Source: Flavobacteriaceae bacterium (lineage in GTDB: Bacteria > Bacteroidota > Bacteroidia > Flavobacteriales > Weeksellaceae). Taken from it: a stretch of 32,448 nucleotides of DNA. Positions 2,274 through 19,994 of this stretch are shown here, piece after piece. Made by a program: the position numbers and the translations under genes. The notes under the pieces were generated by a model. That model was not told the DNA's origin and did no database searches. It saw nothing but the letters and a program-made list of their open reading frames with translations. How positions within the stretch are numbered: position 1 is the first letter of the stretch; each line of letters opens with the position of its first letter. The stretch is taken from the NCBI GenBank assembly GCA_012522185.1, contig JAAYKY010000015.1, positions 1 to 32,448 of the forward strand. The letters are read 5' to 3'.

Positions 2274-3107
2274 ATGGAGAAAATCAATTGGCAAACAATA
2301 AAGGAATACGAGGATATAACTTTTAAAAAATCAGAGGGTGTTGCAAGAATTGCTTTCAATCGTCCCGAAGTTCGAAACGCATTTCGTCCGAAAACCGTTT
2401 TTGAACTGCTCGATGCGTTTACCATCGCAGAAGAAGACCGAAGCATCGGTGTGATTTTACTGACCGGCGAAGGACCTTCTCCCAAAGACGGTGGATGGGC
2501 ATTTTGTTCCGGTGGCGATCAAAGAGTGCGCGGAAAAAAAGGTTACGAAGGAAGCGATAAAGTCGGAAGACTCAACATTTTGGAAGTACAGCGACTGATT
2601 CGTTTTTCAACAAAAGTGGTCATTGCCGTGGTAAACGGTTGGGCTGTGGGTGGCGGACATTCGCTGCATGTGGTTTGCGATATGACGATTGCGTCCAAAG
2701 AACATGCGATTTTCAAACAAACCGATGCCGACGTGGCAAGTTTTGACGGCGGATTTGGATCGGCTTATCTGGCAAGACAAGTCGGACAAAAACGGGCAAG
2801 AGAAATTTTCTTTTTAGGAGCAAATTATTCGGCACAAGAAGCTTTTGAAATGGGAATGGTCAACAAAGTTGTTCCACATGATGAATTGGAACAAGTAGCT
2901 TTTGAATGGGCACAAGAAATTCTAACTAAATCTCCTACGGCGATTAAAATGTTAAAATTTGCTTTCAATTTAATCGATGATGGATTGGTCGGACAACAGG
3001 TTTTTGCCGGCGAAGCAACACGACTTGCCTACGGAACGGACGAAGCCGAAGAAGGAAGAAATGCATTTCTGGAAAAAAGAAAACGAAATTTTGATAAGTT
3101 TCGGTAG
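2274..3107 (+). CDS. menB: 1,4-dihydroxy-2-naphthoyl-CoA synthase MenB
   Basis: MenB cyclises o-succinylbenzoyl-CoA to 1,4-dihydroxy-2-naphthoyl-CoA in menaquinone synthesis. The 277-aa crotonase-fold protein shows [13 protein letters not shown] near the N-terminus, the oxyanion-hole segment [22 protein letters not shown], and the active-site stretch [20 protein letters not shown]. Asp151 occupies the position where bicarbonate-dependent type I enzymes such as E. coli have Gly. This matches the Mycobacterium-like type II class, which uses the side-chain carboxylate; Ser156 and Asp158 are also kept. The C-terminal [15 protein letters not shown] is typical. It stands alone between the dnaJ terminator and a toxin-antitoxin module; menA follows 1.9 kb later and menC/menE about 23 kb later. 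Confidence 0.96.
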
Positions 3108-3158
3108 AATTTGATGTTTTAATATTTCTGATAAATATATTTAGTTAATTCAAATCCT

Positions 3159-3166
3159 TAAATTTG
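3159..3166 (+). promoter_or_regulatory. Bacteroidota -7 element TAAATTTG before the antitoxin gene
   Basis: TAAATTTG fits the TAnnTTTG -7 consensus and ends 4 nt before the ATG at 3171, implying a leaderless or nearly leaderless transcript. No clear -33 TTG is present at the expected distance. Confidence 0.4.
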
Positions 3167-3170
3167 TGCT

Positions 3171-3380
3171 ATGGAATCCATTATCATTCATCCGAAAAGC
3201 AAAAAACAAAGGGAAGCGCTTCAAAACTTTTTAGAAGCCTTTAATATTCCTTTTGAACCCAGTCCTTACAATCCTGAATTTGTGGCTAAGATTAAAGAAT
3301 CTGAGCAGCAAATCAAAGATGGAAAAAGCACAAAAATTAAAACAAAAGAAGAATTAAAAGCTTTTTTAAATGCTTTATGA
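3171..3380 (+). CDS. DUF2683-type antitoxin of a YoeB-like module
   Basis: This 69-aa protein (MESIIIHPKSKKQ start) has a short beta strand, a helical middle and a YNPEFVAKIKESEQQI segment followed by a KIKTKEELKAFLNAL tail. Proteins of this shape are annotated DUF2683 in Bacteroidota and usually sit directly before a Txe/YoeB-family toxin. That is the case here: the toxin frame starts at 3370, overlapping this gene by 11 nt. By analogy it should bind and neutralise the toxin through its C-terminus and autoregulate the operon; no operator palindrome is obvious. Because the toxin frame is interrupted, this antitoxin may now be an orphan. Confidence 0.7.
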   Translation: MESIIIHPKSKKQREALQNFLEAFNIPFEPSPYNPEFVAKIKESEQQIKDGKSTKIKTKEELKAFLNAL

Positions 3381-3636
3381 GCTAGAATTTTCGGAACGGG
3401 CTAAAAGAGATTTGCTTTAATTGAAAAAAAGCGATATTTCTTCTTATAAAAAAGTTGCAAAATTACTCGAAGAATTACAGGAACATCCTACCACAGGAAC
3501 AGGAAAGCCCGAACAATTAAAGCATGAGCTCAGTGGAAAATGGTCTCGGAGAATCAACAAAAAAGATCGTTTGGTTTATCAGATTGATGAAGAACCCAAA
3601 ACAGTCCATATTCTTTCCGCTTTAGGGCATTACTAA
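3370..3636 (+). pseudogene. Txe/YoeB-family mRNA interferase, interrupted by in-frame TAA
   Basis: Read from the ATG at 3370, the frame gives MLYELEFSERAKRDLL, then TAA at 3418-3420, then [20 protein letters not shown] and onward in the same frame to the stop at 3634-3636. Together that is an 88-residue YoeB-like toxin of normal length. The downstream part keeps the family hallmarks: GKPEQLK (the conserved Glu), SGKWSRRI (Arg), RLVYQI and a C-terminal GHY. YoeB toxins cleave mRNA at the ribosomal A site. The stop removes the first beta strand and the start of helix 1 from anything translated downstream. A TTG directly after the stop (3421) could allow reinitiation of a 71-aa product. The overlap with the antitoxin gene is normal for these modules. 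A sequencing error cannot be excluded. Confidence 0.7.
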
Positions 3637-3648
3637 AGTTCAATCAAA

Positions 3649-4899
3649 ATGCAGGAAAACCCAGAAATTCCATCGGTTTGGAAAAACAAAGAATTTATTG
3701 CCTTTATTTTTCTCAGATTTTCACTGATTTTCGCTTTGTTCATTCAAAGTACATCTGTGGCTTTTGAAATATTTCGAATTACCCAAAAAGAAATTTACCT
3801 GGGATTAATCGGCTTATTTGAATTCGCACCGATTTTATTCACTGCTTTTTATGCCGGACAACTCGTGGACCGACTCGACAAACGAAAGGTCATCGTGCGA
3901 TCCATTGCTTCCTTTATGTTGGCTTCCTTCGTTCTGATGATTGTCAATTTCCCGGGCATTCAGGAAAAAGTTGGGACGACCGTTTACCTGGCGCTTTGCT
4001 ATTTTGCCTTCTTTATTTTGGGACTTACCCGAGCTTTCAGCGGACCGGCTCTTTTCTCGCTTTTGGCACAAGTCGTACGAAAAGAAAACTACGAAAAGGC
4101 AATCCCGCTGAGTTCATCGGCTTTTATGATTGGTTCGGTTCTTGGCCCTTTGGCCGGTGGAGTTATTTTAGCTGCTTTTGGAATCGAAGCCGCTGTGGGA
4201 ACTGCATTCGCTCTGATGTGCGTTTCCATGATTATGATTTTGAGAATTTCGCCCAAGCCCGTTCCTAAAGAAGACTTGATCGAGGGAGAAACTCCAATGC
4301 AAAGAATCAAAGTAGGATTTAAATTCATTCTGGCAACGCCGATAATTCTTGCCGTTTTGACGCTCGATATGTTTGCAGTTTTCTTTGGTGGAGCCGAATC
4401 CCTTTTGCCTGCCGTGGTAGAAAAAGTTCTAAATGCTGGTTCAGTCGAATTTGGATGGTTGCGATCGGCTCATGGCATCGGCTCATTGATTATGCTCTTT
4501 TTTCTCTCCTCTCTCCCACTTCTCAAAAGTCGAGTCGGACTCAAATTACTGGGAAGCGTAGCCATGTTTGGAGTTTGTATCATCATTTTTGGTTTGTCTC
4601 AAAACTTTTATCTCTCTTTTTTCGTATTGATGTTTGGCGGTGCATTCGATGCCGTTTCCATGGTCATTCGACAAAGTATTTTACAATTCAAAACACCCGA
4701 AAATCTCAAAGGAAGAGTGTCTTCGGTGAATAGTATTTTTGTGAGTAGCTCCAATGAATTAGGAGCCTTTTACAGCGGAGTGGCAGCAAGTTTAATCGGA
4801 TTAATCCCCGCCATCTTATTCGGCGGTTCCATGACGCTTATCACCGTAATTGTGATTGCTATTTCGATTAAAGCCATTCGCCGGGTTAAATTGGAATAA
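3649..4899 (+). CDS. MFS transporter (EntS/MFS_3-like efflux type)
   Basis: A 416-aa integral membrane protein with about 12 hydrophobic segments and cytoplasmic termini. After TM2 it carries GQLVDRLDKRKVI (about residues 65-77), a major-facilitator motif A. The central loop (about 200-225) separates the two six-helix halves. The general pattern, including the SGPALFSLLAQVV segment and the R-x-S-S-V-N-S near TM10-11, fits the MFS_3 group that includes enterobactin exporters and macrolide-type efflux proteins. The substrate cannot be deduced. It starts 12 bp after the toxin stop with no promoter visible between, so it may be transcribed with the toxin-antitoxin module. The palindrome at 4904-4936 starts 4 bp after its stop. 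Confidence 0.85.
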   Translation: MQENPEIPSVWKNKEFIAFIFLRFSLIFALFIQSTSVAFEIFRITQKEIYLGLIGLFEFAPILFTAFYAGQLVDRLDKRKVIVRSIASFMLASFVLMIVNFPGIQEKVGTTVYLALCYFAFFILGLTRAFSGPALFSLLAQVVRKENYEKAIPLSSSAFMIGSVLGPLAGGVILAAFGIEAAVGTAFALMCVSMIMILRISPKPVPKEDLIEGETPMQRIKVGFKFILATPIILAVLTLDMFAVFFGGAESLLPAVVEKVLNAGSVEFGWLRSAHGIGSLIMLFFLSSLPLLKSRVGLKLLGSVAMFGVCIIIFGLSQNFYLSFFVLMFGGAFDAVSMVIRQSILQFKTPENLKGRVSSVNSIFVSSSNELGAFYSGVAASLIGLIPAILFGGSMTLITVIVIAISIKAIRRVKLE

Positions 4900-19082: not shown

Positions 19083-19994
19083 ATGAAAAAACTTTCTTTT
19101 CTTTTAGCCGGATTGGCTTTTACAGTTGGCTTTGGTCAGGTTAATTATTTGCAAACTGCAAATACAGTAATTAGCTATCCTGCACCAGTGTCATCAGATG
19201 CAATTTGTAACTTCGGCTATCCTTCAGATGCCTATTACGCTGGAGGGGAGCTTGTTAGCTTCGCATCTGTAATTGAATTTACTGAAGGGGAAACATTTCA
19301 ACCAAGTGAAATGAATATCGCATTAGGAATATATGATGATTTATCTTATGATATGACTTCTGCTGAAATTGAAATTACAATTTTGAATGATGACTCTTCT
19401 ATGTTCCCTAGTACTGAAGCTATTTCCTCAGTTACTGTTTCACCTTCTGAAGCTACTTTTTTAGAGACGATTTCTTTGACAAGTGGCGCAGTAATTCACA
19501 TGTATCAAGTTAAACTTGATTTATCTGGAATGGACGCGGTTACTCCCGAACCAGGAGAAACTATGAAATGGATTAAAATTCACAAAGCTAATGACGATGG
19601 AGTCGCAATGGCGGTAAACTTTACTCTATCAGCAATAGGTGGACTGACATATTATTGGGATGACTTAATTGAAGATTGGAATGTATTTAATGCTTCAGAA
19701 CCAGACAATATTTCATTTACGTATGATTTAATTGGAGACTGTTCTGTGATGGGAATTTCTGAAATCGACTCTTCTTCAGTAGCAGTTTACCCTAATCCCG
19801 TAAAAGATATCTTAAATGTTTCTGCTAAAAATGCTGACGTAAAAGAGGTTCAAATCGTTAACATGAACGGACAAGTAGTTGCTTCTTCAAAAGCTGCTTC
19901 TGTAAACGTTTCAACTCTACCAAGTGGTGTTTACATCGTAAAAGTAGTAGATGCAAAAGGAAACGTAACTACTTCTAAAATCGTTAAAAAATAA
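19083..19994 (+). CDS. Small secreted protein with T9SS type A sorting domain
   Basis: A 303-aa exported protein. The signal peptide (MKKLSFLLAGLAFTVGFGQ) has a likely cleavage after GFG. A beta-rich central domain (about 20-225) ends with FTYDLIGDC, and the last 70 residues form a Por-secretion C-terminal domain: VAVYPNPVKDILNVS, VQIVNMNGQVV and LPSGVYIVKVVDAKGNVTTSKIVKK. Such domains direct export by the type IX secretion system with removal of the tail. The central domain resembles modules of the giant protein at 28479 (compare VYELIGTC and the YYWDDL/YWWNDL segment). No catalytic motif is seen. A leader of about 35 nt may follow a weak TAATTTCG element (19048-19055 region), and a strong terminator follows. 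Confidence 0.9.
   Translation: MKKLSFLLAGLAFTVGFGQVNYLQTANTVISYPAPVSSDAICNFGYPSDAYYAGGELVSFASVIEFTEGETFQPSEMNIALGIYDDLSYDMTSAEIEITILNDDSSMFPSTEAISSVTVSPSEATFLETISLTSGAVIHMYQVKLDLSGMDAVTPEPGETMKWIKIHKANDDGVAMAVNFTLSAIGGLTYYWDDLIEDWNVFNASEPDNISFTYDLIGDCSVMGISEIDSSSVAVYPNPVKDILNVSAKNADVKEVQIVNMNGQVVASSKAASVNVSTLPSGVYIVKVVDAKGNVTTSKIVKK

What the first reader, a model, noticed from the sequence alone, without database searches (positions are those of the whole stretch)
3370..3636. YoeB-type toxin carrying an in-frame stop beside an intact antitoxin
The sequence shows MLYELEFSERAKRDLL, TAA, LKKSD... all in one frame, with the C-terminal catalytic-type residues (GKPE, SRR, GHY) intact. Everything except codon 17 looks like a functional Txe/YoeB toxin. 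Either the toxin was recently inactivated and the antitoxin is now an orphan, or a 71-aa form is made from the TTG directly after the stop, or the stop is read through, or this is a base-call error. The recent-looking single lesion is notable.
Basis: partly seen in the sequence, partly recalled or inferred. Interest (0 to 1): 0.5.

Follow-up and report, generated by a model that had tools for sequence, protein, structure and literature searches.

The report
Recently broken YoeB toxin, intact antitoxin
A small bacterial self-poisoning gene has been switched off by one premature stop signal while its antidote gene is still whole, which is an ordinary and already described way for such gene pairs to decay.

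Summary
A Txe/YoeB toxin frame (3370-3636, +) has an in-frame TAA at codon 17 (3418-3420). It overlaps by 11 nt an unbroken 69-aa DUF2683 gene (3171-3380), the presumed antitoxin. Each is the only copy found in its genome.

Best reading: a real, recent nonsense mutation that killed the toxin. The frame keeps 19 of 19 columns that are conserved in at least 80% of 120 relatives. The stop sits at a variable position inside helix 1 of the read-through model, so a 71-aa restart product would lack strand 1 and half of helix 1.

It is not special. Of 50 DUF2683-YoeB modules surveyed in the bacterial family, window included, 9 have a broken toxin beside an unbroken antitoxin, 1 has both broken, and none seen has only the antitoxin broken. 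Reviews describe TA decay by nonsense mutation (PMC7167474, PMC2654758; passages read). A base-call error cannot be excluded without reads. Readthrough is unlikely: TAA ends 16 of 25 window ORFs. One loose end: in-frame stops of other YoeB genes fall near the same place more often than expected (post hoc).

The parts
3171..3380 (+). Unbroken 69-aa DUF2683 gene, presumed antitoxin
   Evidence: ORF; PF10884 E 8.7e-24, residues 1-63 on profile 1-65 of 66; only copy found in the genome. Antitoxin role inferred: 47 of the 53 best family rows have a YoeB match within 3 kb downstream.
3370..3636 (+). Txe/YoeB toxin frame, interrupted at codon 17
   Evidence: Translation; profile match across the stop 1-80 of 80.
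3418..3420 (+). In-frame TAA, the lesion
   Evidence: reality of the base not testable without reads.
3421..3636 (+). Remaining open frame of 71 aa with a TTG directly after the stop
   Evidence: hits TIGR02116 on its own, E 2.1e-20.
3159..3166 (+). TAAATTTG, resembling the Bacteroidota -7 promoter box (TAnnTTTG, recalled), 4 nt before the DUF2683 ATG
   Evidence: the pattern is not enriched in the window (43 found, 35.6 expected), so weak.
2274..3107 (+). menB, left neighbour, part of the insertion-site comparison
   Evidence: TIGR01929 E 3.2e-121, full profile.
3649..4899 (+). MFS transporter gene, right neighbour, 12 nt after the toxin stop
   Evidence: NF007792 E 2e-44, below its cut-off.

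Best explanation
This is a chromosomal type II toxin-antitoxin module of the DUF2683-YoeB kind, sitting between menB and an MFS gene, whose toxin has recently been killed by one nonsense mutation. Shown: the anatomy, the family matches, a single lesion, the retained conserved residues, the single copy, and the absence of the module from this site in the four sister genomes that could be compared. Inferred: when intact, the YoeB protein would cut mRNA at the ribosome and be held by the DUF2683 protein, as in known YoeB pairs. Translation now stops after 16 residues, so no working toxin is made, and the antitoxin gene is left without a partner.
For: Frame open and YoeB-like on both sides of the stop. 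19 of 19 columns conserved in at least 80% of 120 relatives are kept; relatives keep 94.5% on average. Stop inside helix 1 of a confident read-through model that matches YoeB structures. No second YoeB or DUF2683 copy. Module absent from the menB-MFS site in G001, G003, G004 and G005. Toxin-first breakage is recurrent in the family: 9 of 50 modules toxin only, 1 both, 0 antitoxin only. Nine of 10 other window genes scanned match their best families over nearly their full length, so the contig does not look error-ridden.
Against: The perfect conservation fits a base-call error equally well. No reads and no second strain of the species were available. The same-place clustering of stops in other YoeB genes (5 of 11 in codons 17-24) is not explained by random loss, though it was noticed after the fact.
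Confidence: 0.75

Rival explanations
1. Base-call or assembly error: the strain has an unbroken toxin.
For: One lesion only, all conserved residues kept; draft assembly of 63 contigs; no reads available.
Against: Nine of 10 other genes scanned are unbroken over nearly their full profile; comparable toxin lesions occur in cultured strains too (L054, L049); the genome is rated 99.63% complete, 0.18% contaminated.
Confidence: 0.13
2. A 71-aa protein made by restart at the TTG directly after the stop is the working product.
For: The TTG abuts the stop and the remainder keeps the catalytic residues. In-frame stops of other YoeB genes cluster near here: 5 of 11 in codons 17-24 (post hoc).
Against: The product lacks strand 1 and residues 9-17 of helix 1; its model is less confident (mean pLDDT 86.1 against 93.2), though such models are weak tests of truncation. 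Other stops have no start codon close behind: the first ATG/GTG/TTG lies 16 codons on in L208, 6 in L209, 31 in L213 and 5 in L049, and none lies within the 28 and 30 codons examined in L068 and L025.
Confidence: 0.06
3. The stop is read through.
For: The frame continues without loss.
Against: TAA ends 16 of 25 ORFs that I picked in the window. The position is variable in relatives (K 35, Y 24, R 13, F 12, A 9 of 120). None of the 11 in-frame stops placed in other genes lies at codon 17. Suppressor tRNAs elsewhere in the genome were not searched for; the window has no tRNA.
Confidence: 0.02

Closest known systems
YefM-YoeB of Escherichia coli (PDB 2a6q, 2a6r)
   Same: Toxin family, fold of the read-through model (2a6r chain C, Foldseek E 7.4e-10, TM 0.88), aligned catalytic Glu and His.
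   Different: Here the toxin is interrupted and the upstream partner is DUF2683; it matched no PDB chain convincingly (best E 0.11).
Decaying chromosomal TA loci of E. coli: ccdO157, and the hok-sok copies of K-12 (passages of PMC2654758; PMC7167474)
   Same: Chromosomal TA locus that is losing function; the reviews name deletions, insertion sequences, point and nonsense mutations.
   Different: Other toxin families and another phylum; the primary paper on ccdO157 was not read.
Unbroken DUF2683-YoeB modules in the same bacterial family (for example L167, L168, L170-L172)
   Same: Gene order, near-abutting or overlapping genes, toxin family.
   Different: Toxin frame unbroken; other genomes and sites.

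Membership tests
Txe/YoeB toxin family (TIGR02116, PF06769) | Sequence match over the curated cut-off | tested here: met
   72.7 bits against 51.8; 67.6 against 27.
Txe/YoeB toxin family (TIGR02116, PF06769) | Catalytic Glu and C-terminal His | tested here: met
   E48 and H87 align with E46 and H83; both columns over 96% conserved in 120 relatives.
Txe/YoeB toxin family (TIGR02116, PF06769) | Complete reading frame of about 84-95 codons | tested here: not met
   TAA at codon 17 of 88. It is a broken member.
Txe/YoeB toxin family (TIGR02116, PF06769) | Ribosome-dependent mRNA cleavage | not testable with these tools
   Needs a bench assay.
Type II toxin-antitoxin module | Small antitoxin gene directly upstream, overlapping or abutting the toxin gene | tested here: met
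   3171-3380 overlaps 3370 by 11 nt; the association recurs in 47 of 53 best DUF2683 rows.
Type II toxin-antitoxin module | Antitoxin protein neutralises the toxin | not testable with these tools
   DUF2683 gave one paper in the library, with one mention unrelated to TA.
Decaying chromosomal TA module | Inactivating lesion, with both genes still recognisable | tested here: met
   One stop in the toxin, antitoxin unbroken.
Decaying chromosomal TA module | Lesion present in the living strain, not an artefact | not testable with these tools
   No reads; one genome per species held.

The most novel reading that the evidence does not exclude
The toxin was lost but the DUF2683 antitoxin is kept for a purpose. 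As first gene of a transcript that may now run into the MFS transporter 12 nt downstream of the dead toxin, it could have become a repressor of that operon, or it could protect against incoming YoeB-bearing plasmids (anti-addiction).
Probability: 0.07. Interest if true: 0.4.

Novelty: new member of a known kind. Interest (0 to 1): 0.13.

Why it matters
On its own, little: one more decaying chromosomal toxin-antitoxin pair. The by-product is a small count in one bacterial family in which DUF2683-YoeB modules break in the toxin first (9 toxin only, 1 both, 0 antitoxin only of 50, window included). That fits the expected order of decay and supports naming DUF2683 as a YoeB antitoxin family. The clustering of stops in helix 1 of unrelated YoeB genes would be worth a proper count.

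Tried and rejected
A compensating second copy: none found, one YoeB and one DUF2683 match in the genome. A viral contig as source: 43 stretches matched a pattern, none was confirmed. Sigma-70-type promoter and terminator scan of 3050-3750: 0 and 0 sites, which says little for Bacteroidota. tRNAs in the window: none. A conserved restart form: rejected after listing start codons behind the stops. Literature: DUF2683 gave 1 paper; some searches gave TA decay and orphan antitoxins as known subjects; two searches gave nothing on this pair in their listings. These are the only searches made on whether DUF2683-YoeB is in print.

Counting caveats. One search lists 150 rows and says more are not listed. 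From I kept by hand the 53 best rows (down to E 2.0e-8; the row G300:C12 at 2.1e-8 and all weaker rows were dropped, many of them partial matches to short frames without a YoeB partner). Of the 53, 47 have a listed YoeB match within 3 kb, 3 more have toxin remains by tblastn, and 3 (G347, two of G008) have no recognisable toxin and were left out of the 50; G347's antitoxin row carries a stop. Because the set was seeded by antitoxin matches it favours unbroken antitoxins. N-termini were read by eye. One module (G011, L169) has ATA where relatives start with ATG and was counted as unbroken. The 138 distinct relatives include loci fetched because they looked broken, so its 16 lesions are not a rate; 122 were classed intact by a crude rule and 120 of them entered the alignment. 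The clustering of stops was noticed after the fact, region and set included. In my first, returned draft I had compared pLDDT 57 with 89 for the C-terminal end; the 57 belongs to the last residue alone, the ten before it average 82, and the claim was dropped.

Full report
The observation. At 3370-3636 (+) the window reads 16 codons, a TAA at 3418-3420, and 71 further open codons. The part after the stop is recognised by itself as Txe/YoeB (TIGR02116 E 2.1e-20, Pfam YoeB_toxin E 9.9e-19), and the match continues upstream of the stop when it is read through (profile 1-80 of 80). The gene before it (3171-3380, 69 aa) is an unbroken DUF2683 protein (E 8.7e-24) that overlaps the toxin start by 11 nt. 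One YoeB and one DUF2683 match were found in the 2.55 Mb genome. Two genomes of its family share contig lengths with records of Halpernia frigidisoli (1079781) and Cruoricaptor ignavus (471175), and the NCBI taxonomy places Halpernia in Weeksellaceae.

The site. In the genus, 5 of 6 genomes, own included, match the menB-MFS region. G003 and G005 have about 61 nt between menB and the MFS gene (counted by eye). G001 and G004 have one other gene there. The window has 541 nt with the module. G002 gave no match. So among the four sister genomes that could be compared, none has the module at this site. G001 has a DUF2683-YoeB pair elsewhere with an unbroken toxin, 55% identical to the window's.

How fresh the lesion is. 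In an alignment with 120 relatives the window keeps 19 of 19 columns conserved in at least 80%; the relatives, each left out in turn, keep 94.5% on average. Nothing but the stop sets the frame apart from a working toxin. The stop falls at a variable position (K in 35, Y in 24, R in 13, F in 12, A in 9 of 120). This fits a recent event and equally a base-call error.

Restart or readthrough. The frame read through (TAA as a residue, table 6) folds with high confidence (mean pLDDT 93.2), with strand 1 at 4-7 and helix 1 at 9-21. Its best PDB match is a YoeB chain (2a6r, E 7.4e-10). The 71-aa form lacks strand 1 and half of helix 1 and is modelled with less confidence (mean pLDDT 86.1). This is only a hint, since such models are weak tests of truncation. 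Of 138 distinct relatives, 122 have the frame open to within 4 codons of the place of 3370; the other 16 are classed as lesioned. TAA ends 16 of 25 window ORFs that I picked. Both readings are unlikely, not excluded.

How common this is. In 320 genomes of the family, 93 have a YoeB match at E up to 1e-5. Of the 150 listed rows 8 carry a stop, the window included. On inspection G015, G320, G139 and the window have a single stop in an otherwise open frame; G038, G358 and G315 also have a frameshift; G290 is a fragment. Of the 80 loci of a separate collection 5 carry an in-frame stop, two of them cultured strains (L054 Pedobacter insulae, L049 Dyadobacter jejuensis).

Which gene breaks first. Starting from the 53 best DUF2683 matches (cut by hand), 50 have a YoeB gene or remnant beside them. 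Nine of these 50 have a broken toxin and an unbroken antitoxin: the window; G321 (interrupted by about 1.4 kb of other sequence); G322, G034, G139, G122 and G326 (frameshifts); G315 (stop and frameshift); G306 (in-frame stop). One (G331) has both broken. Forty show no lesion, and none seen has only the antitoxin broken. Seeding by antitoxin matches favours unbroken antitoxins. The direction agrees with the idea that the toxin must go first.

A loose end. In window numbering the in-frame stops in otherwise open YoeB frames lie at 17 (window), about 19 (G015), about 21 (G320), about 24 (G139), 24 (L068), 31 (L049), 35 (L025), 58 (G306), 64 (L054), 71 (L031) and 5 (G331): 5 of 11 in codons 17-24 (the positions of G015, G320 and G139 were counted by eye). 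Those codons hold 9.4% of the one-step chances for a stop in 29 relatives, which gives a nominal probability of 0.002. Region and set were chosen after the fact, so this is a lead and no more. The frameshifts of G034 and G038 also lie at about codons 15-20. No common restart codon follows these stops, which speaks against a conserved short form.

Against the literature. Two reviews, of which I read passages only, state that chromosomal TA systems decay, by deletion and nonsense mutation (PMC7167474), or by insertion sequences, point mutation and rearrangement (PMC2654758). The finding is one more case. DUF2683 appears in one paper of the held library, in a passage not about toxins; its role as YoeB antitoxin rests here on gene association.

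Verdict. A real, well-observed feature; most likely an ordinary, recent loss of a toxin. Interest is low.

Noticed in passing
window 3108-3648 and loci L124-L127: The menB-MFS junction is a variable site in the genus: short and empty in G003 and G005, one other gene in G001 and G004, the TA module in the window. A TAATTTTG in the empty sites and TAAATTTG at 3159 suggest that the module sits just behind the old MFS promoter.
   Followed up: partly
L213, L208, L209, L068, window 3418-3420: In-frame stops in otherwise open YoeB frames fall in codons 17-24 in 5 of 11 cases; noticed after the fact and unexplained.
   Followed up: partly
L157 (G321): The toxin of a DUF2683-YoeB module is split by about 1.4 kb of other sequence whose nature was not identified; the antitoxin is unbroken.
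   Followed up: no
genus g20 genomes (for example G111, G230, G225): Many genomes have a 61-67-codon frame that matches only about the first 37 positions of DUF2683, without a listed YoeB match beside it; possibly a separate solo family.
   Followed up: no
window 19083-19994: Protein with a C-terminal secretion-sorting domain (Por_Secre_tail, E 1.2e-15), typical of type IX secretion (recalled).
   Followed up: no
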